Notes under the pieces: generated by a model
The model's input: the letters and a program-made list of their open reading frames with translations, nothing else
Database searches by the model: none
Told to the model about the DNA's origin: nothing
Made by a program: the position numbers and the translations under genes
Assembly (NCBI GenBank): GCA_945861535.1
Contig: CAMAUZ010000004.1
Coordinates: 124,001 to 188,000, forward strand
Reading direction: 5' to 3'
DNA: 64,000 nucleotides
Source of the DNA: Akkermansia muciniphila
Lineage (GTDB): Bacteria > Verrucomicrobiota > Verrucomicrobiia > Limisphaerales > BJHT01
Shown: positions 264 to 28,996 of the stretch, piece after piece
How positions within the stretch are numbered: position 1 is the stretch's first letter
How the letters are laid out: every line of letters starts with the position of its first letter

Positions 264-3200
264 TCAGTCCACAAACATCAGCTCATTGGACAACAGGAGC
301 ACCTGGCAAAAACGCTCCCAAGTCTCCAGCGGCTTCTGGCGGCTGGCACGCGCACCCATTTCAAACTCAGCGCCTGCTTTCCATTCCCGGGCTTCGTCAC
401 CCGAGACCATGTCACCAGCACCCATTGTCTTGGCCATCGTCGCTCCCGCCGGCCTGACCGGTGCCGGACCCGCAACCCGAAGAGTCGGCGACCAGGTGAA
501 TTGGTCGGACCGGGGATTGGTGTTGCAGGTGACAATGAAGTCAATCGTGTCACCCCGTTTCAGCTCCACTTTCGGAATGTTGGTATCAACCTTCTTGGAG
601 TAAACCGTCCAACGGCCCAACTCACCGGCGCGACTGCTCACAATAAACGCCTGCACGCCATCACCTTCCTTGGAAATGTGGGTTAGAGCCGCTTCGATGG
701 TCAGAGTGGCATCCTTGGGCGCCGTGAAGCGCCGGATCACCGCCAACTGTTTGATGTTACCCGGATGGCCGCCCTTGCCGTCCAGACTCAGCATCCCATA
801 ACGCGAGTCGGGCAGCAACGGGCCACCCTGCCAAGCCTTGCCCGTATAGTGCGGCAGCGGATAGAAGCGTTGCACCGCCTTATATTTTTCGTCGTAGTTA
901 CCGTAACCGTATTTCCAGATAGGTTCGCGGGCATCGGACTTGATGCCCGACGCGGCTTCGAGGAAGCGGGTCGCCAATTTTACCTCAATCGGATCGGGCA
1001 GGCGCTGGAAAGCAGCCTGGTAGATCGCCTCGATGCGGCGCCCGTCGTCGACTTCATTCTTGAAGTCGGTGCGATGAACCAAGCCGCGCGCCAGATCGGC
1101 CACGAAGGGACTGTTCATCATAAACAGCGCCTGCTGCGGAACGGTCGAGTTGAAGCGTTCCCCCACGGTTGCCTCGGGATTGGCGAAATCGAAAGTGCGG
1201 AAAATCGTCGCCAGATTCCGGCGATCAATGAAACCGTACATCGTGCGCCGATAACTGAACGGCTCCTGGGTCAGGCTCACCGACTGCCCACCCATCGTCA
1301 GGTCCATCTTGCCACTGATCGTCAGCAGGTTGTCGCGAAACGCCTCGAAATCCAGCCGACGGCGATTCATGCGGTGGAACAACAGGTTGTTGGGATCAAC
1401 CGCCGAGAACTGCGGCACGTCATCGCTCGACTGCTGATAGGTGTTGGAGAGCATGATCATGCGGTTGAGCTTCTTGATGGACCAGTTGTTCTCCATGAAA
1501 TAGGAGGCCAGCCAGTCCAACAGTTCCGGATGGGACGGGTCTTGGGCCCGCATGCCGAAGTCGCTAATGGTCCGGACTATGGCTCCCCCGAAATGCTGGT
1601 ACCAGACGCGATTCACAAACACCCGGGCGGTCAACGGATTGTCTTTGCTGGCGATAGATCTCGCCAACTCCAGCCGGCCGCTACCCTTTTCAAATGGACG
1701 CCGATTCGGACCGGAGAGAATTTCCAAGAACTGTCGCGGCACTTCCGCACCACGGTTGTTCGGGCTTCCCTTGATCAGGATCGTGGCATTCCTCGGAGTC
1801 TTCTGGTCCATCAACGCCATGGCGCGCTTGGGTGATCCGGGATGGCTGACCTGCAGATTGACGATCTTGTCCAGATACGGACCTTCCTGATTGCGGATAC
1901 GGTTGTTGTTGAGACCCGCGAGCTGATCGTAGTTGAGCTTCAAGGGGGAATCATTGCCATAGAGAACCTTGCGCAATTCCTCTTGGGCCGGATCAGCCAA
2001 CCCCTTCGGCGCGGCTTCTTCTTCCTTGGAACTGGCTTTCTTCTTTTCGTAGAGAATGACCGCGCTCTGCCATTGCCGTTCCGCGTCCGCGAACAATTTC
2101 ACGTAGCGGTCGATGACCACGCCAAAGGAACTGGCCGGGGTGGAGAAAGCGCGGGCCACCAGCGGATTGAGCTTCTTCCCAGCGTCGCCTTTGTATTCCG
2201 CCGCCAGTTCCCTGCCCTTGGCGGCAAATTCCTTGTCGGATAGGTCATTGTAAGCAGCCCACGGAGCGAAGATCGGATCGTTCTTGCGGCCCGCAGCCTT
2301 CTTTACATACGAACTCCACCGCTGGATCATGAAAACCTCCAACTTCCGGTCGCGGGCAAATTTCTCGGTGTCAGCCCGATCCATTTTTTCATCACTGACA
2401 GACAAATCATGGGCTGCCAGCAAATAACCGAAGAGATTGGTGCGGGCCTTGGTGAGATAATTGTTCAACGTCCTGATGCGGAAGGTGTCCAACTCTTCTT
2501 CATAGGCGGCCTGCCGGGCGACAAACTCACGGTATTCCGGAGTGTCCACCGGCGCTTCCAAGAGAGGCTTCTCTGCGGGCTCGATGGAACTGGCAAACAC
2601 GCCGTAGAGTGAGTAGTAGTCGGCCGTAGGAATCGGGTCGAATTTGTGATCATGACACCGGGCGCAATACACCGACAACGCCAGCGTGCTCCGGGTCAGC
2701 GTGTCGATACGGTCGTCGATGGTATCCTGCATGTTGGCACCCTGACGCCCGAGGGTGAAAAATCCCATGGCCGCCAAGACTTTCTTGTCATCCCCGGCCA
2801 CCTGGTCACCAGCGATCTGTTCGATCAGGAACTGGTCGTAGGGTTTGTCCCGGTTGAACGCATCAACGACGTAGTCCCGATAGGTGAAGGAATAGATAAA
2901 CCGATTCGGACCCATGTTATTGTTATTGCCGCCCCGGGTGTCCGAGTAACGCGCCAAATCCAGCCAATACCGACCCCAGCGTTCCCCATAATGCGGTGAG
3001 TCCAGCAGTCCATCGACGACCTTGGTGTAGGCATCGGGGGATTCGTCGGAGACAAAGGATTCCACTTCCGCTTGGGAGGGGGGAAATCCAACCAGATCGA
3101 AATAGGCGCGTCGAATGAGGGTGACCTTGTCGGCCGGAAACGCGGGGATCATCTTCCGCTCTTCCAACTTCGCGAGGATGAAGGAATCGACCGGATTCTG

Positions 3201-3728
3201 GACCCACTTCTTGAGATTGAGCTTCGTCTGGGGAACCTCCGGCTTTTTGACCGGCTGAAACGACCAATGCGCCTTGGCTTTCGCCCGATCAGCTTCGCTC
3301 TTGAGAATGCCACCCTGCTTCCCGGTGCGGGGGTCCGGCGCACCCATCTTCACCCACGCTTCAAAGTCGGCGATCACAGCGTCCGACAACTTCTCTTTCG
3401 GCGGCATCTGGAGATTCGGGTCCAGATAGCGAATGGCTTTAATGAACAAGCTTTTCTCGGCATTGCCCGGCTCAATCGACGGTCCCGATGATCCACCTTT
3501 CATGGTCCCCTCCTTGGAGTCGAGGGCCAAGCCACCCTTGATCTTGTCGCTCTCGGCACTGTGGCACTTGTAGCAATTCTCGATGAGTGCCGGCCGAATC
3601 TTGCTTTCAAAAAACTCCGACTCTTCAGCCGACAACGGCTTCGCTGGTTCAGCGGCGAAACTTGTGACAGCCGCTTGGATGACAATCCAGGCAACCGCTC
3701 CTATTGGTCCCACTTTGCTCGTTTTCAT
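264..3728 (-). CDS. PSCyt1-DUF1549-DUF1553 secreted cytochrome-like protein
   Basis: This 1154-residue protein has a Sec-type signal peptide (residues 1-25). A planctomycete-type cytochrome c motif CYKCH follows at 52-56, with the MPPKEKLS segment typical of PSCyt1. The DUF1549 domain lies at about 178-385 and carries a second CxxCH (CARCH, 355-359) followed by DHKFDP. The DUF1553 domain lies at about 680-950. The C-terminal ~200 residues look beta-rich. Family knowledge: these proteins are abundant in Planctomycetes and Verrucomicrobia, are predicted to be exported, and are usually paired with a DUF1501 protein; their substrate is unknown. That pairing is present here, with the DUF1501 gene directly upstream on the same strand. 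The spacer between the two holds a strong hairpin, so readthrough or a separate promoter is needed. A heme-binding role is inferred from the motif only. Confidence 0.93.
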   Translation of the reverse strand: MKTSKVGPIGAVAWIVIQAAVTSFAAEPAKPLSAEESEFFESKIRPALIENCYKCHSAESDKIKGGLALDSKEGTMKGGSSGPSIEPGNAEKSLFIKAIRYLDPNLQMPPKEKLSDAVIADFEAWVKMGAPDPRTGKQGGILKSEADRAKAKAHWSFQPVKKPEVPQTKLNLKKWVQNPVDSFILAKLEERKMIPAFPADKVTLIRRAYFDLVGFPPSQAEVESFVSDESPDAYTKVVDGLLDSPHYGERWGRYWLDLARYSDTRGGNNNNMGPNRFIYSFTYRDYVVDAFNRDKPYDQFLIEQIAGDQVAGDDKKVLAAMGFFTLGRQGANMQDTIDDRIDTLTRSTLALSVYCARCHDHKFDPIPTADYYSLYGVFASSIEPAEKPLLEAPVDTPEYREFVARQAAYEEELDTFRIRTLNNYLTKARTNLFGYLLAAHDLSVSDEKMDRADTEKFARDRKLEVFMIQRWSSYVKKAAGRKNDPIFAPWAAYNDLSDKEFAAKGRELAAEYKGDAGKKLNPLVARAFSTPASSFGVVIDRYVKLFADAERQWQSAVILYEKKKASSKEEEAAPKGLADPAQEELRKVLYGNDSPLKLNYDQLAGLNNNRIRNQEGPYLDKIVNLQVSHPGSPKRAMALMDQKTPRNATILIKGSPNNRGAEVPRQFLEILSGPNRRPFEKGSGRLELARSIASKDNPLTARVFVNRVWYQHFGGAIVRTISDFGMRAQDPSHPELLDWLASYFMENNWSIKKLNRMIMLSNTYQQSSDDVPQFSAVDPNNLLFHRMNRRRLDFEAFRDNLLTISGKMDLTMGGQSVSLTQEPFSYRRTMYGFIDRRNLATIFRTFDFANPEATVGERFNSTVPQQALFMMNSPFVADLARGLVHRTDFKNEVDDGRRIEAIYQAAFQRLPDPIEVKLATRFLEAASGIKSDAREPIWKYGYGNYDEKYKAVQRFYPLPHYTGKAWQGGPLLPDSRYGMLSLDGKGGHPGNIKQLAVIRRFTAPKDATLTIEAALTHISKEGDGVQAFIVSSRAGELGRWTVYSKKVDTNIPKVELKRGDTIDFIVTCNTNPRSDQFTWSPTLRVAGPAPVRPAGATMAKTMGAGDMVSGDEAREWKAGAEFEMGARASRQKPLETWERFCQVLLLSNELMFVD

Positions 3729-3906: not shown

Positions 3907-5319
3907 TTAGGCGATAACGTCTTTTACCACCTTGCCGAAGACGTCGGTCAACCGGAAATCCCGGCCGCCAGAGCGGAAGGTGAGCTTCTCGTGATCAAAG
4001 CCCAACAGGTGCAGGATCGTCGCGTGGAGATCATGCGGATCCACCGGGTTTTCGACCGCCGCACTGCCAAGTTCATCAGTCGCGCCGTAGGCGAAGCCAC
4101 CCTTGACACCGCCACCCGCCAACCAAGCCGACATGGCCTTGTTGTTATGCGTGCGCCCACCGGGACCGTCTTGAGCCGAGCTACGTCCGAACTCGGTGCT
4201 GCAGACGATCAATGTGTCCTTGAAGAGACCACGATCCTTGAGGTCTTGGATGAACGCGGCGATCGGCTGATCGCTTTGCGCCGCCGTGCGCGGCATGTTC
4301 TGCTGAATGCCCGCATGGGTGTCCCAACCGCCCTGCCAGACCTGCACGAAACGAACTCCGCGTTCCAGCAAGCGCCGGGCGATGATCATCTGCCGGGCGT
4401 GACCACCCTCACCGTAGGCTTTGACAACCTTCTCCGGTTCACGCGCCACATCGAACGCCTCGGTGGCCTCGGTCTGCATCCGGTAGGCCAGTTCAAAGGA
4501 CTGAATTCGGGCTTCCAACTGGGCTTCCGCTTTGCGCTTCTGCTTATGGACTTCGTTGAGCTGATACAGAAGATCAAGCTGCTCGCGCTGCTGGTTCGCC
4601 GAGGTGAAACCGCTCCGGATGTTCTCGATGAGCGTTTCGATCTTGGTGTTCCGCGGATCAATGTTCGTTCCTTGGTAGTGGCCCGGCATGAAGGCCGAAC
4701 CCCAGTTGCGCCCGTTGTTGCCACCCAAGACGACGAAGCCGGGGATGTTCTGGTTCTCGGTTCCCAAACCGTACAGCACCCACGACCCCATGCTGGGCTT
4801 CGGCAGGCGGAAGTCGCCGCAGGTCTGGAGCAAGGTCGCCTCGTCGTGCGCCGGCACCGCAGTGTTCATCGAGCGGATGATCGTCATGTCGTCGGCGTGC
4901 TTGGCGATATGCGGCCAGATTTCGCTCAGTTCAAGACCGCTCTTGCCCGAGGGGATGAACTTGAAGGGCGACGCCAGCAGCTTGCCACCCCCGCGGCCCA
5001 TGCCCGTGCCCGCAGTCATGCCAGCCTTCTTTTCCAACTCGGGCTTCGGATCCCAAGTGTCAATATGCGACTGGCCACCGCTCATCAAAATGTGAATGAC
5101 GCGCTTGGCCGAGCCCTTGAAATGACCCTGCTTGGGGGCCAGCAAGTTGGCCGAGGACTGCGCCGCCGCTTCCCGGACCAGATCAGGTCCGAGCATCGAG
5201 GCCAGCCCGAGCACGCCGAACCCGGTCCCGAACTTGTTCAGGAACTCGCGCTTCGTGAGGAAGGCATTCTTGAGTTGAGGCCGGTGATTTTCGTCGTTTG
5301 GGATGTAGTTGAGGTTCAT
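3907..5319 (-). CDS. DUF1501 domain protein
   Basis: This is a 470-residue DUF1501 protein of the alkaline phosphatase-like/sulfatase-like superfamily, common in Planctomycetes and Verrucomicrobia. I chose the ATG at 5319 because it puts the basic KREFLNKFG export-type signal and hydrophobic segment (about residues 25-45) at the N-terminus. The upstream in-frame extension to 5481 is not protein-like. Family motifs visible are GGQSHIDTWDPKPEL near residue 90, CSTEFGRSS, and the C-terminal DPHDLHATILHLLG followed by FRLTDVFG. It lies upstream of the cytochrome-DUF1553 gene, the usual family arrangement. The molecular activity of DUF1501 is not established; a periplasmic role alongside the cytochrome partner is inferred from linkage. 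Confidence 0.92.
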   Translation of the reverse strand: MNLNYIPNDENHRPQLKNAFLTKREFLNKFGTGFGVLGLASMLGPDLVREAAAQSSANLLAPKQGHFKGSAKRVIHILMSGGQSHIDTWDPKPELEKKAGMTAGTGMGRGGGKLLASPFKFIPSGKSGLELSEIWPHIAKHADDMTIIRSMNTAVPAHDEATLLQTCGDFRLPKPSMGSWVLYGLGTENQNIPGFVVLGGNNGRNWGSAFMPGHYQGTNIDPRNTKIETLIENIRSGFTSANQQREQLDLLYQLNEVHKQKRKAEAQLEARIQSFELAYRMQTEATEAFDVAREPEKVVKAYGEGGHARQMIIARRLLERGVRFVQVWQGGWDTHAGIQQNMPRTAAQSDQPIAAFIQDLKDRGLFKDTLIVCSTEFGRSSAQDGPGGRTHNNKAMSAWLAGGGVKGGFAYGATDELGSAAVENPVDPHDLHATILHLLGFDHEKLTFRSGGRDFRLTDVFGKVVKDVIA

Positions 5320-5597
5320 AACCGAAAACTTTTCAATTTTTCGCCGCCCAGAGCGCTTTTTTATCAAAACCGGGCGGCATTTGTTTACGGAAAGTAGCAT
5401 TCGCCACCACCACTGCAATACAATTTTGGAAACGCTGCAATGACGACACAGCAGCAGGTTTTTCCCGCGCTTGGCTCGCATTTTTCGGAGCCAACGTCGC
5501 GGTTGAACGGATTTATTTTTCCGCCCCGTGCGAGCCTGTTATCGACCGATTGAAAAGAAAATTGAGTTCTCCACCGGAATTCTCCACTCTCGCCGTC

Positions 5598-21383: not shown

Positions 21384-21765
21384 CGGGGCGCAACTATGGG
21401 GACGCGAGGGAGGGTGTCAAACGACGGGGCGGCCCTGGGGAGGGCTGGTAAAAAATGGGGGCGGAAATAATGGGAGGGACGGGAAAGGCTGCGCCGCTCC
21501 TGTGGGGCAGGCTGCCAGCCTGACGGTTCGGGTGGCATCCGTGCCGCCCGTACCCACGGCGGACGTGCGGCACGGCGGACCTTGGAACACGGGGCAGGGA
21601 TGCCCCGTGAACCGGCAGGCAAGGATGCCTGCCCCACTCATCCGCGTTCCCAGTTCCCTCTTGATATTCGCCCCCCGTGTTTGTTCAGTCGGACGCGTCT
21701 CTGGCCGTAAACCGCGAAAGTGTTAAGGGTACCGGACAGCAACCGTTTGCGAAGACCGCGACCCA
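21384..21765. other. Intergenic region carrying repeat family 2
   Basis: This 382-bp gap between divergent uvrB and the zinc-ribbon gene must hold both promoters. Most of it is the repeat at 21501-21636. The last ~100 bases before 21766 contain no motif I can name. Confidence 0.5.
21501..21636. repeat. Palindromic repeat family 2, copy A
   Basis: A 136-bp element beginning TGTGGGGCAGGCTGCCAGCC and ending AAGGATGCCTGCCCCAC, with internal ACGGGGCAGGGATGCCCCGT and GGCATCCGTGCCGCCCGT. The ends are inverted repeats of each other. A second copy is at 28860-28996. Confidence 0.85.
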
Positions 21766-23675: not shown

Positions 23676-23740
23676 CCGGGTGTGTCCCGTAGCCGCCGAG
23701 GTAACGAGGCGGAGCGCCACGACGGCCAAACGCCCTCCTG

Positions 23741-24007
23741 GTAGGGCCGAGTTGCGCGCGTCCGTGACCTTTCCCCGGCCCGACCAAACGCGAGAGGGCA
23801 TTCATCATCGCGGTCAGTTCGGGCGCGGTCGTGGGGAAAAGGTTACGGACGCGCGCAACGCGTCCCTACCGGATTTGGTAGGGCCGAGTTGCGCTCGGCC
23901 CTGACCTTTCCCCGGCCCGGACAAACGCCAGAGCGCATTCAACATCGCTGTCAGTTCGGGCGCGGTCGTGGGGGAAAGGTCACGGACGCGCGCAACGCGT
24001 CCCTACC
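23741..24007. repeat. Tandem pair of 130-bp elements with terminal inverted repeats
   Basis: Two direct copies (23741-23870 and 23878-24007), each exactly 130 bp, are separated by 7 bp and differ at roughly a dozen positions. Each begins GTAGGGCCGAGTTGCGC and ends GCGCAACGCGTCCCTAC. About 36 bp at each end are near-perfect inverted repeats, running in to CCTTTCCCC / GGGGAAAGG. No coding potential. The structure is that of a non-autonomous MITE or a BIME-like unit. Confidence 0.85.
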
Positions 24008-24039
24008 GGAGTGAAATGCCGCGCTCCAGGAGCGTGGGC

Positions 24040-24172
24040 GGAGCGCGGCTGTGTCCCGCGCGGCGCGGGATCAGCCGCAGCGGCCGCGGCGGGAGGGACG
24101 GCACACAAAATCTCGACGCCCTCACGCGGTCCGTCCGTGCTGCGGCTGGTCGCTGCGACACAGCCGCGCTCC
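24040..24172. repeat. Inverted repeat with 16-bp arms
   Basis: Perfect arms 24040-24055 and 24157-24172 (GGAGCGCGGCTGTGTC and its complement) enclose about 100 bp rich in GCGGCTG motifs. It lies immediately downstream (minus-strand sense) of the template repeat. No gene is seen between it and the template. Confidence 0.75.
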
Positions 24173-24346
24173 GGGGGAGGAAATACGGGCCGTGACTTTC
24201 GGGTTTCACGCCTACCGGCCACGGCCCGCGCCGCGTATTTTCCCCGGCTTCTCCGGGGCCTGGTGATGCGGGTTAGGTGGCTTCTTGGCACTGACGGGCA
24301 AGGCCCATTGCCCGGCCCGCACCTCGCCGTTTCCGTTGAGCACCTT

Positions 24347-24485
24347 CCAGCAGCCACGCCCACCAACACACACCGAAACCCAAGATTGTTGTTACGATTC
24401 TCAGGCTCGTTGTCGTTGCGGTACGAAGCGCGGAGGTTGTCGTGATCGTTGTTGATCCACGAGCCCCCGCGCACCACGCGAGCGC
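24347..24485 (-). repeat. DGR template repeat (TR)
   Basis: A 139-bp copy of the 3' end of the FGE-domain gene, in the same orientation and about 170 bp downstream of it. Compared with the variable repeat (24655-24790) it has ten substitutions and one extra codon. Nine of the ten are adenines here, on the minus (coding) strand, among 26 adenines in 139 bases. Read in the target's frame it encodes INNDHDNLRAS and RNDNEPENRNNNLGF, the Asn-rich AAC/AAT pattern typical of template repeats. The last 38 bases contain no adenine and are identical in both copies, as expected for the initiation-of-mutagenic-homology end. Similarity stops abruptly at both ends, so it is not a simple duplication of the gene's 3' region. 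Confidence 0.88.
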
Positions 24486-24541
24486 GTCTGTCCGCACCAC
24501 CCGTTCTGGCATATCCCGCACCGAAAAGTACGGTTTTGGCC

Positions 24542-24567
24542 AAAAAAATTTCGCCGCTAACGCGGCG
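24542..24567 (-). terminator. Hairpin with U-tract downstream of the DGR target gene
   Basis: A 6-bp GC stem (24552-24557 with 24562-24567, 4-base loop) is followed on the minus strand by AAA and then seven T. It lies 72 bp past the target gene's stop and upstream of the template repeat. It can serve as an intrinsic terminator. Hairpins downstream of variable repeats also assist retrohoming in phage DGRs, but this one is farther away than in that case. Confidence 0.6.
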
Positions 24568-24638
24568 GAGATAAGAGGAAAAAGACAAAAGGGAAAAGGG
24601 CAAAAAGTTAAAAGGGAAAGAGGGCCAGAGGGCAGAGC

Positions 24639-27600
24639 CTAACCGTGCCACCCACCAGCAGCCACGCCCACCAACACACACCGAAACCCAAGACTGTCGA
24701 TACGAGTCCCACGCTCGTAGTCGTAGCGGTACGAAGCGCGGAGGGTGTCGTGAACGTTGATCCACGAGCCCCCGCGCACCACGCGAGCGCCCGTGTTTTC
24801 AAGGTCCGCCTCAAGCTTTTCGGCCTTCGCTTCGTAGCCGGCGTAATTGGGCAATCTCGGTGTGAGACACCACTCCCACACATTGCCCGCCATGTCTTCG
24901 GCCCCGCACTTGGCCCGGCCTTGGGAGAACAGGGCCACCGCCGAGGTTTTGTTCAGGCCGGTATTGCCCATGTTACAGAGCTCAGCGATGGCCTTGTCCT
25001 CGTTGCCCCACGGGTACGTCCGGCCATCGAGGTGGCGCGCCGCGCGTTCCCACTGGGCTTCGGTCGGCAGGCAGATGACCTCGTGCTTTTCGATCCGTCC
25101 CGCCGTTCGCAGCTTGCCCGTGAGCCAGCGGCAGAAGGCAAACGCCTCGTACCAGCTCACGCCCACGCGCGGATGATTCGGGGTCTGGAACACCGGGTCG
25201 TCATCATTGCGCGGGCCGGTGATTTTATTTTTCGTGCGCCACTGCCACCCGGCCTTGGTCCAACACGTTTCGTGCTTCGCCGCATACCCATCGTCATCCA
25301 CAAACGCCGCGTACTGCGCCACCGTGACCGGGTAGCGGCTGATCGAGTAGTCCTCCCGGATCAACCCGCATTTCGGCATCTGTGGCCGCTCGGTGTCGAA
25401 ACCCTCACCCGCCTTGCTGCCCATGATGAACGGTCCCTTGGGGAGTTTGATCCAGTGTTTGGTCCCGTAATCCAGCCCCACGCCGTCGCGGTCATCGCCA
25501 AACCGCCCGATGGCCGAGGCGGCGCGGGCACGGTTGGCAATGGGCAGGGTGCCGTCGCGGACCTCGGTGAGGCGTTGGACGAGGCGGGCGACAATCTCCG
25601 GGGTGCGGCGGGGATTCTTGTCGCCCCACTTCGCCATGCCGACGTCGCGCGCGATCTCGACGGCCAGATCGAGGTCATCCAGCGCCTCCGGATCAGTGAC
25701 GACGCCATCGGGGATGAGTTCATCGACCAGGTCGCGAACATCGCTGCGGTCCGTGTGAACGTAGGTCTTGACCCCGGCGGCCCATTGCACCGGCAGCCGG
25801 GCGTAGTTTCCCTGGTCGCGGAGGAGTTGGCGGGCGCGCAGATCGAATGATTGGGGATTATCCTGATCCTTCCAAAAATCCTCGCGGGCGAGGTGGCAGC
25901 CGGCGAGGAATTCCTCGAATTTATAGGGAAATTGGAACTGTTTGCCGTCGTCGGACTGGAGCACCCCGGCGCGATGTTGCATGGCCAGGATCATCCGGTT
26001 CACCCAGTCCGTATCGACATCCCCGATCTCGATCAAGCAGCCACGAATCAGGGTGATCTCCACACGGTTTTCCCCGCGCTTGGAGTGCGGCCGGGCGGCG
26101 CGGGCAAGATAGGCGATGGCCTGGAGTTGTTCGCGGAGGCGTTTGACGCCGTTGTCGATTCCTTTTTCTTTGAGGAGCGCGAGCAGGGTTGGCAGTCCGT
26201 CGGTGTCCTCGGCATCGCCGCGGCGTTTGCGCGTATCGTTGAGGATGCCATCGACGAGTTCGTTCATGAGTTCGGCGCTGGAGTTGGGCAGTTGCTTTTC
26301 GGGCCGATGGAGGGCGGCCATGGCGGTCAGGAAAAACGGGTTGGACGCCATCTTTACGAGGCGCTCGGTGTCGAGGGCGCGGATGAGGGATTGGGCCGTG
26401 CTGACGGCTTCGGCATCATACTCGGTGCGCTTGTCGGAGAGCTGGCGGTACCAAGCGTTGACAAAGCGGTCACGCAGTTCGGGGGAAAGGGGAACGATGG
26501 TGTGTTCGTTCGGGAAGGCGGCGAGTTTGAACTCTGGGAGCCGGTAGGAGGCGATGCGGCAGGTGACGGCGATCCGGCATTTGCGAAAGCCGCCGGTGGC
26601 GAAGGACTCGATGGCGCGTTTGACAACCGGCAGGAGTGCGCCCGGGACTTCGTCGAGGCCATCGAACATCACCAGGGCGAGGCCGCGGGTCAGGACTTCG
26701 CGCAGATGCGGTGCAGCGGCGTGGCTGTGCTCCGCCAATTGCGAGTGTACATGGTGGTACACGTCTTCGGACGTGCCGACATCGGCGGCGGTGAGTCCAC
26801 GGGAGAACGGAAGCAGCGGAATCCGCACAGGCAGCGCGCGGCAGGCGCGGAGGAGGCCATCGACCTCGTCGCTGATGCCCGCAAACTTGGAGTCGTCCGG
26901 TTTTGGGCTGGAGAGTTTGTCGGCGAGGAAAAGGGTGACGTACTGGACGAAGGTGGATTTGCCCGAGCCGGGTTCGCCGAGGAGAACCACGCGGGGCGGG
27001 GTGGAAGTGAGGAGGGCTTCGAGGGCGGAGAGGTGGCCGGGTTGTTCCGCGCTTTCGGGTTTACGCAACTGGGTTTCATTCCTGGCTCGCGGCGTATCCG
27101 TCTGCAAGCTGGCGTAAACATGCGGCAGGCGGGGGATGCGACTGCTGGAAAGCTTGATGCCGCGGAGTTCGACCTGATCGCATTTATCGGCCACCGAGGC
27201 CATCCAATCGCGGAACTCGGCGAGAAGGGCGTCGTCGGTGAGGGGGGGAGCGGTGGATGTGGCCGAAGCGGTAGACGGGGCGAGCGGAGAACGAGGGAGT
27301 TTTGGGGGGAAGGGCATCGTGTCGGGGGATCCCCATTTGGCGAGATTGGCGAGGGCGTCGGCGATGAGGAGGAGTTGGGGGGTATCGGCAAGGACGGGGG
27401 GAGCGGCGGGGGCTTTTGGGTTGTGGATGGCGATGAGGAGTTGGTCGGCCGAGATGTCGGAGGTGTGGCAGCAGATGTCGAGGGAGGAGGTGGTTTTGTC
27501 GCGGGGGGTGGTTTTTTTGATTGAGAACCAGTGGTCGAGGGTGAAGGTGCCTTTGTCACCCGCTTTTATATACCCGCAGAAATCACGCATCCACTCGAGG

Positions 27601-27977
27601 GCGTCGGGATCGCTGCGATCGAGCACGCCTTTGAGCATGGCGGCGGGGCTGCCGGGTTTACCGCGGAGGAGCGGGTGCGTTCCCGGATGATCGGCGTAGA
27701 GGTCGAGGATGTATTTCAGGCGGACCAGCGCGAGGACCAGCGCCTTGAAAGCCTGCGGCTTGGCGGATGGATCGGTGGGGTCGCTCCAGTCCAACGGCCG
27801 CTCGAGGGTCCGGCCGGGGAGGTTGGAGGTGAGAAACTGTTGCTTCCACCCCTTGTCATCGGGATCCCCATAGGCACCGGCCGTCTCGACGCGGGTGGCG
27901 ACGAGTTTCACGGGGTCGAGCTGGAAGGTGAGGGTGACGCGGGGAGTGGGCGGGGTGGTTGGCGTGGCGGAACTCAT
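24639..27977 (-). CDS. NACHT-type NTPase fused to FGE-sulfatase/CLec domain; DGR target
   Basis: A 1112-residue protein. Residues 1-250 form an unrecognised N-terminal domain (HTSDISADQLLIAIHNPKA) and a Pro/Ser linker. A NACHT/STAND NTPase follows, with P-loop GEPGSGKSTF at 334-343 and Walker B LVMFDGLDEV at 435-444. A helical region runs to about 830. From about 845 it is an FGE-sulfatase (formylglycine-generating-enzyme-like, C-type-lectin fold) domain with FIMGSKAGEG, PTEAQWERAARH, GNVWEW, RVVRGGSW and LGFRCVLV. No catalytic Cys pair is visible in its C-terminal part, so it is probably a binding scaffold. Residues 1063-1108 are encoded by the variable repeat. STAND NTPases switch on when a sensor domain binds ligand. 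Here the sensor would be the diversifiable domain and the N-terminus the likely output. It is isolated in a repeat-rich region. Confidence 0.92.
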   Translation of the reverse strand: MSSATPTTPPTPRVTLTFQLDPVKLVATRVETAGAYGDPDDKGWKQQFLTSNLPGRTLERPLDWSDPTDPSAKPQAFKALVLALVRLKYILDLYADHPGTHPLLRGKPGSPAAMLKGVLDRSDPDALEWMRDFCGYIKAGDKGTFTLDHWFSIKKTTPRDKTTSSLDICCHTSDISADQLLIAIHNPKAPAAPPVLADTPQLLLIADALANLAKWGSPDTMPFPPKLPRSPLAPSTASATSTAPPLTDDALLAEFRDWMASVADKCDQVELRGIKLSSSRIPRLPHVYASLQTDTPRARNETQLRKPESAEQPGHLSALEALLTSTPPRVVLLGEPGSGKSTFVQYVTLFLADKLSSPKPDDSKFAGISDEVDGLLRACRALPVRIPLLPFSRGLTAADVGTSEDVYHHVHSQLAEHSHAAAPHLREVLTRGLALVMFDGLDEVPGALLPVVKRAIESFATGGFRKCRIAVTCRIASYRLPEFKLAAFPNEHTIVPLSPELRDRFVNAWYRQLSDKRTEYDAEAVSTAQSLIRALDTERLVKMASNPFFLTAMAALHRPEKQLPNSSAELMNELVDGILNDTRKRRGDAEDTDGLPTLLALLKEKGIDNGVKRLREQLQAIAYLARAARPHSKRGENRVEITLIRGCLIEIGDVDTDWVNRMILAMQHRAGVLQSDDGKQFQFPYKFEEFLAGCHLAREDFWKDQDNPQSFDLRARQLLRDQGNYARLPVQWAAGVKTYVHTDRSDVRDLVDELIPDGVVTDPEALDDLDLAVEIARDVGMAKWGDKNPRRTPEIVARLVQRLTEVRDGTLPIANRARAASAIGRFGDDRDGVGLDYGTKHWIKLPKGPFIMGSKAGEGFDTERPQMPKCGLIREDYSISRYPVTVAQYAAFVDDDGYAAKHETCWTKAGWQWRTKNKITGPRNDDDPVFQTPNHPRVGVSWYEAFAFCRWLTGKLRTAGRIEKHEVICLPTEAQWERAARHLDGRTYPWGNEDKAIAELCNMGNTGLNKTSAVALFSQGRAKCGAEDMAGNVWEWCLTPRLPNYAGYEAKAEKLEADLENTGARVVRGGSWINVHDTLRASYRYDYERGTRIDSLGFRCVLVGVAAGGWHG
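24655..24790 (-). repeat. DGR variable repeat (VR) at the 3' end of the NACHT-FGE gene
   Basis: 136 bp encoding residues ~1063-1108 of the target. Substitutions relative to the template give Val, Thr, Tyr, Tyr, Arg, Gly, Thr, Ile, Asp and Ser in place of Asp, Asn, Asn, Asn, Pro, Glu, Asn, Asn, Asn and Asn. Codon changes such as AAC to TAC, ACC, ATC and GAC are all at adenines. The one exception is CCT to CGT. One AAC codon of the template is absent. The variable positions fall where the CLec fold exposes its ligand-binding loop, just before the invariant LGFRCVLV strand. Confidence 0.88.
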
Positions 27978-28283: not shown

Positions 28284-28859
28284 GCGGGAAGGGAGCGGGG
28301 TGTTGCAAAGAATTGAGCGGCGCCCGATGGCGGGCTGTGCGCGCCACAGATGCCTGCGCCGAGGTTCACCCGTCTCCCCCAAACCCAATTGGCCCTGCGG
28401 TGGGAAAGCGCCGGGCCTCTGGCGCCGTTTTTGCGGCACGGTCTCCGCTGCGGCCCCCATACCAACCCCGGCCAGATCGGATGAAATTGTCTGCGCCCAG
28501 CGCGTGCCGAGTTAACCGCGTTGCCCATTTCCCTCCCTCCCGCGCCTGTCGGCAACCTTGTCGGTGAATTTCAGACAAACCCACCGACGGCAGGATCAAA
28601 CCCCCAACCCTATCCTCGGGACGCTTCGAAAATTTTATGCGGTTCGAAGCAGCGTTCGCGAGACGCCGGGTCCTGGCCGGGACCCAGAACCGCTCCACGA
28701 CAACGACAGTGAAAACGAACAGCGTCCTATGAAACCATTCGCAAACAACGGCGCTCCCACCACGGCGGGGAGCGAGAAGACGGCGGCAGTCAACCAAGCT
28801 CGTGGCCACGAGCAGGGCGCGTCGCGTCCGCGGCCCGCGCGGCAAGGGCACTCCGGCTC

Positions 28860-28996
28860 TGTGGGGCAGGCTTCCAGCCGGACGGTTCGGGCGGCATCCG
28901 TGCCGCCCGTTCCCACGGCGGCCGGCCGGAGCGGCGGAAGCCGGAACACGGGGCAGGGATGCCCCGCGAACTGGCAGGCAGGGATGCCTGCCCCAC
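28860..28996. repeat. Palindromic repeat family 2, copy B
   Basis: A second copy of the element at 21501-21636, about 137 bp, with the same boundaries (TGTGGGGCAGG to GATGCCTGCCCCAC). Its right end carries the ATG at 28984 that is the best start of the following gene, so the repeat abuts or supplies the translation start. Confidence 0.85.

What the first reader, a model, noticed from the sequence alone, without database searches (positions are those of the whole stretch)
24347..24790. Template/variable repeat pair with adenine-specific differences: a diversity-generating retroelement
Seen directly: 24347-24485 and 24655-24790 are the same 136-139 bp in the same orientation, differing at ten bases. 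On the minus (coding) strand nine of the ten are adenines in the downstream copy (26 of its 139 bases are A), changed to T, C or G. The shared 38-base 3' end contains no adenine and is identical. Homology ends sharply at both borders. Established knowledge: DGRs copy a template repeat through an error-prone reverse transcriptase that mutates adenines, and homing starts at an invariant 3' end of the variable repeat. Inference: this is a DGR whose variable repeat is the end of the NACHT-FGE gene.
Basis: partly seen in the sequence, partly recalled or inferred. Interest (0 to 1): 0.95.

Follow-up and report, generated by a model that had tools for sequence, protein, structure and literature searches.

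The report
Retroelement target and template without reverse transcriptase
A bacterial sensor gene carries the marks of a machine that rewrites part of the gene at random, together with the RNA template for the rewriting, but the enzyme that should do it is missing at this place and from the assembled genomes of both species that have the locus, so who runs the machine, or whether it has just stopped, is open.

Summary
In detail: 24347-24485 (TR) and 24655-24790 (VR) differ at ten bases, nine of them TR adenines (p = 3.5e-7; BPP-1 control positive, three other repeats negative). It is DGR-made: VR is the C-terminal end of a NACHT-FGE (C-type-lectin-fold) gene, no A-to-N change in the TR codons makes a stop, and TR is followed by a structured RNA (24178-24342, minus strand) that covaries across the order and occupies the place of the DGR spacer RNA. 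In eight related genomes the same VR-TR-RNA cassette is followed within about 1 kb by avd and a DGR reverse transcriptase. Here, and in the one congener available, both genes are missing from the locus and from the assembled genomes (96.6% and 95% complete); interspersed repeats lie in their place. Yet in both species VR equals its own TR at 28/28 non-adenine sites where the two species' TRs differ, so homing continued after the species split, until recently. Either a reverse transcriptase acts in trans from DNA not in either assembly, or both lineages lost it very recently; the data do not decide. New variant of a known kind (Thiohalocapsa has RT-less DGR loci beside an intact one).

The parts
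24639..27977 (-). Target gene, 1112 aa: NACHT-like STAND NTPase with C-terminal FGE-sulfatase (C-type-lectin-fold) domain
   Evidence: Pfam FGE-sulfatase E 1e-51 at residues 840-1101; NACHT E 3.5e-5, just under the cut-off; the FGE part matches PDB 2y3c, Treponema denticola variable protein 1, E 3e-11
24655..24790 (-). Variable repeat (VR), last codons of the target gene
24550..24575 (-). Hairpin followed by T run after the target gene (terminator-like; approximate coordinates), found at the same place in the related loci
   Evidence: alignment of VR-TR spacers
24347..24485 (-). Template repeat (TR), 26 adenines, AAC/AAT-rich codons, no stop reachable by A changes
24178..24342 (-). Structured RNA directly after TR, corresponds to the DGR spacer (Sp) RNA; three conserved hairpins, the last terminator-like
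   Evidence: R2, built from loci with an RT only, scores it 142.7 bits, within their range; covariation
23739..24168 (.). Interspersed inverted and tandem repeats (GGTAGGGACGCG... family and another inverted repeat) where avd and the reverse transcriptase lie in related loci

Best explanation
This is the non-coding half of a diversity-generating retroelement: target gene with VR, template repeat, and spacer RNA. A DGR reverse transcriptase with Avd copied the TR transcript, putting random bases opposite adenines, and the cDNA replaced the VR of the NACHT-FGE gene, varying the lectin-fold surface of a presumed sensor. The avd and RT genes that follow the RNA in related genomes were lost from this locus and repeats lie there instead. 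The same state is seen in the only congener available, and homing went on in both lineages after they split. The enzyme therefore most likely acted in trans, at least after the local copy was lost. Whether it still does is undecided. Shown: TR/VR pattern, RNA family, lack of RT/Avd in both assemblies, concerted evolution. Inferred: action in trans, transcription, sensor role.
For: Adenine-only differences in both species. At 106 non-adenine sites the two species' TRs differ at 28, and at all 28 each VR matches its own TR; one deviation elsewhere. Sp RNA family: covariance-model hits in 13 of 320 genomes of the order; 94% of cells paired and 21 of 34 pairs with double changes, against 31-46% and 5-8 when slid. 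With a model built without them, the RNAs of window and congener score 142.7 and 135.9 bits; loci with an RT score 119.8-164.1. Loci of the family with intact flanks have avd and a cognate RT (63-100% identical to that of G035) within about 1 kb. No RVT_1 match in G001 at E<=10. In the own genome only a group II maturase. Avd absent from both. No RT/Avd remnant downstream. Known precedent: Thiohalocapsa loci DGR 4/5, where MITE-like repeats replaced the RT and diversification is attributed to action in trans (PMC10907252).
Against: No trans-acting enzyme was found. Both assemblies are drafts, so 'absent' is not proven. The RT-less state may have arisen twice and recently, which needs no trans action. 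The two loci lie in different neighbourhoods, so common origin of the RT-less junction rests on the shared repeat family alone. No expression or population data.
Confidence: 0.6

Rival explanations
1. Freshly orphaned DGR: each lineage had its own local avd-RT until very recently, lost it independently to repeat-driven deletion, and the pair is now dead but has not yet drifted.
For: RT and Avd missing from both assemblies. RT loss is not rare: G090 has a decayed locus with target fused to TR-RNA and no VR, RT or clear avd. In the window pair there is already one non-adenine substitution and a 3-base deletion.
Against: It needs two recent independent losses with TR and Sp RNA left whole. VR-TR divergence at non-adenine sites is 1 of 231 (95% upper bound 2%) against 26% between species, so both losses must fall in roughly the last tenth of the time since the split. 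The same interspersed repeat lies at both junctions.
Confidence: 0.3
2. The local or unlinked RT exists in the population or genome but is missing from the consensus assemblies (structural variants, plasmid, or gap).
For: Such mixtures were seen by long reads in Thiohalocapsa (PMC10907252). DGR-like RTs about 43% identical occur on plasmids of other bacteria. Both genomes are fragmented.
Against: Completeness 96.6% and 95%. Both contigs run through the locus into other genes without RT. A random gap in both is unlikely (about 0.2% if independent). This overlaps with the best explanation in mechanism.
Confidence: 0.25
3. Ordinary tandem duplication with later divergence or gene conversion under selection; no retroelement.
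For: The copies are close together in direct orientation.
Against: 25 of 27 substitutions over both species at TR adenines; other repeats show no such bias; gene conversion would also homogenise adenine sites; TR is followed by an RNA of DGR loci with an RT.
Confidence: 0.01

Closest known systems
Thiohalocapsa PB-PSB1 DGR loci 4 and 5 (Dore et al. 2024, PMC10907252)
   Same: DGR targets in conflict-type proteins with lectin-fold domains; RT gene replaced by MITE-like repeats; diversification attributed to components acting in trans
   Different: There an intact related locus (DGR 2) with matching TR is in the same genome; here no DGR RT is found in either species, and the template used is the local one
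Bordetella phage BPP-1 DGR
   Same: Adenine-specific TR/VR differences; by published work a structured spacer RNA after TR (PMC12875486)
   Different: BPP-1 has avd and brt at the locus; its spacer is not matched by the RNA model; its target is a phage tail protein
FGE-target DGRs of the same GTDB order (G035, G086, G265, G118, G075, G273, G087, G129)
   Same: VR-TR-Sp RNA order, same RNA family, FGE-type target
   Different: They carry avd (mostly antisense) and a DGR RT within about 1 kb
Rfam RT-3 RNA (RF03068)
   Same: Weak full-length match; shared GGUA...CGAA element in the last hairpin
   Different: 14.2 bits, far under the gathering score 40.5; no RT-3 match in the tested relative G035 locus; membership not shown

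Membership tests
Diversity-generating retroelement | TR/VR pair whose substitutions fall on TR adenines | tested here: met
Diversity-generating retroelement | VR at the 3' end of a protein-coding target, C-type-lectin fold | tested here: met
   FGE domain; match to TvpA 2y3c; no model was folded here
Diversity-generating retroelement | Invariant 3' end of TR and VR (IMH) | tested here: met
   39 identical bases without adenine
Diversity-generating retroelement | Structured spacer RNA 3' of TR | tested here: met
Diversity-generating retroelement | DGR-type reverse transcriptase in the element | tested here: not met
   none at the locus or in the assembly; only a group II maturase, TIGR04416 above cut-off
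Diversity-generating retroelement | Accessory protein Avd | tested here: not met
   no match in G000 or G001 at E<=0.1; clear matches in 9 of the 10 relatives searched, only E 0.008 in G090
Diversity-generating retroelement | Ongoing mutagenic homing | not testable with these tools
   needs population reads or an assay; recent past homing is inferred
Rfam RT-3 RNA | Score above the family's gathering threshold | tested here: not met
   14.2 against 40.5 bits

The most novel reading that the evidence does not exclude
A lasting RT-less DGR: a target-template-RNA cassette that has been kept functional in a genus for most of its history by a reverse transcriptase supplied from outside the core genome (for example a plasmid), so that the ability to diversify a NACHT sensor is switched on only when that element is present.
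Probability: 0.2. Interest if true: 0.8.

Novelty: new variant of a known kind. Interest (0 to 1): 0.55.

Why it matters
DGRs are usually searched for by their reverse transcriptase, so loci like this are invisible to such searches. The covarying spacer-RNA model gives a handle to find them and to pair orphan templates with their enzymes. If the cassette is served in trans, diversification of an immune-type sensor would be divided between a resident target and a separate, perhaps mobile, enzyme. If it is freshly dead, it dates how such systems are lost.

Tried and rejected
An RT in the window: none. The group II-like RT on C50 as supplier: QG motif, TIGR04416 above cut-off, truncated, and absent from the congener. 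My first reading of G035:C358 as a second RT-less cassette: wrong, it is a canonical VR-TR-Sp-avd-RT locus followed by a second TR-Sp. Rfam RT-3: sub-threshold. A cognate RT in viral contigs: only 38% identical or less, and the Sp core pattern is absent there. Cognate RT on plasmids: below 60%. RNA model on NACHT-FGE loci of other phyla and on viral DGRs: no convincing match, so the RNA family looks restricted. PADLOC: no match of the target. Synteny between the two species downstream: none found within the 92 kb of contig C4 compared; an earlier attempt with tblastx gave no usable result, as the program may not be installed.

Full report
Observation. On the minus strand the end of the gene 24639-27977 (VR, 24790-24655) and a copy about 170 bases further on (TR, 24485-24347) differ at ten bases, nine of them TR adenines (p = 3.5e-7), plus a 3-base gap; the last 39 bases are identical and free of adenine. 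The bacteriophage BPP-1 DGR gives the same signal in the same test, and three other repeats do not. No second pair of this kind is in the genome.

The target. The gene codes for 1112 residues with a NACHT-like NTPase part (Pfam score just below the cut-off; Walker-type sequence seen directly) and an FGE-sulfatase domain whose end is the VR. The domain matches, among FGE enzymes, the solved DGR variable protein TvpA (2y3c). TR codons are mostly AAC and AAT; no change of a TR adenine makes a stop in the VR frame. That DGRs diversify NACHT-linked lectin-fold proteins is known (PMC10907252), so the target is not the novelty.

The missing half. The own genome (G000, 7.9 Mb, 169 contigs, 96.6% complete) has one reverse transcriptase, on contig C50. 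It has the QG motif of group II introns, scores above the cut-off of TIGR04416 and is truncated. Queries with the BPP-1 enzyme and the enzyme of a relative find nothing else, and Avd is not found. Downstream of the TR there is no remnant of either gene.

The congener. G001, the only other genome of the genus held, has an orthologous gene (57-60% identical) with a VR and a TR of its own (L138: 2441-2581, 2750-2890) and 14 of 14 substitutions at TR adenines. It too has no Avd, and no RVT_1 match at E up to 10.

The RNA. After the TR both species share a region that is better conserved than the spacer before it. It is also found in G035 of the same order, next to a DGR enzyme with the SQ motif (GLPIGNLTSQ at C358; GLPVGNLTSQ at C182; seen directly). 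A covariance model (R1) finds it in 13 of 320 genomes of the order. Across 22 matches 94% of cells are paired and 21 of 34 pairs have changes on both sides, far above shuffles and slid controls. That alignment was fitted to the model, so this leans towards it, but the RNAalifold counts on the MAFFT alignment of five sequences agree (13 of 37 pairs). The RNA lies where BPP-1 has the spacer that recruits the RT-Avd complex and primes cDNA synthesis (PMC12875486). That it does the same here is inference.

Order of the related loci. In eight genomes the order is VR - TR - RNA - avd (mostly antisense) - RT within about 1 kb; the second G035 locus, C182, has avd - RT - TR - RNA. G345 and G459 of the class fit as well. 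Loci without RT are those cut by contig ends, weak RNA matches, G090 (a decayed locus without VR), and the window and G001, whose contigs run on. There, interspersed repeats (78 and 74 hits of the motif per genome) follow the RNA. The model R2, built only from loci that have an RT, scores the window's RNA 142.7 and G001's 135.9 bits, within the range of 119.8-164.1: no sign of decay.

Timing. At 106 sites without adenine in either TR, the TRs differ at 28. In all 28 each VR follows its own TR; one VR base deviates elsewhere. So copying from TR to VR went on after the species parted. VR-TR divergence at such sites is 1 in 231 (95% upper bound 2.1%) against 26% between species, so the last copying was recent in both. 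If the RT-less arrangement is inherited, the enzyme acted in trans for most of that time. If not, both lost it very recently. The shared repeat favours the former; the different neighbouring genes leave it open.

Verdict. DGR origin is as good as certain. The RT-less state of both assemblies is shown; its meaning is not. A similar state, with MITE-like repeats in place of the RT and an intact sister locus in the genome, is published for Thiohalocapsa. Here no sister locus is found. The organism was not identified by name; the genome handles carry none.

Noticed in passing
L138, L139, L167-L171, L173, L175: At the 3' border VR reads T-AGG where TR reads A-AGG in most loci of the family, whatever the reading frame; this may be the polarity mark between target and template (IMH/IMH*).
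   Followed up: partly
L174 (G090:C17:1-12000), RNA at 5274-5444: An FGE gene runs directly into a TR-like end followed by the Sp RNA, with no VR, no RT and no clear avd: a decayed DGR.
   Followed up: partly
L117 (JAIOAS010000106.1), VR 3132-3224, TR 3488-3580; L075 (DYKZ01000006.1): NACHT/FGE-related loci of Chloroflexota with adenine-biased pairs but no RT match within the locus (L117), or only a C-terminal RT piece and Avd (L075).
   Followed up: no
window 23739-24010 and G001:C270 3085-3889: Interspersed repeat family GGTAGGGACGCGYTGCGCGCGTCC, over 70 hits in each of the two genomes, often in inverted or tandem pairs.
   Followed up: partly
L139:1944-3362 and L144:3558-4919: In G035 the RT reading frame runs on through the template repeat, so that the TR is also a possible C-terminal extension of the RT.
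   Followed up: no
window 21482-21637 and 28841-28996: A second repeat pair (85% identical over 156 bases) on either side of the locus.
   Followed up: no
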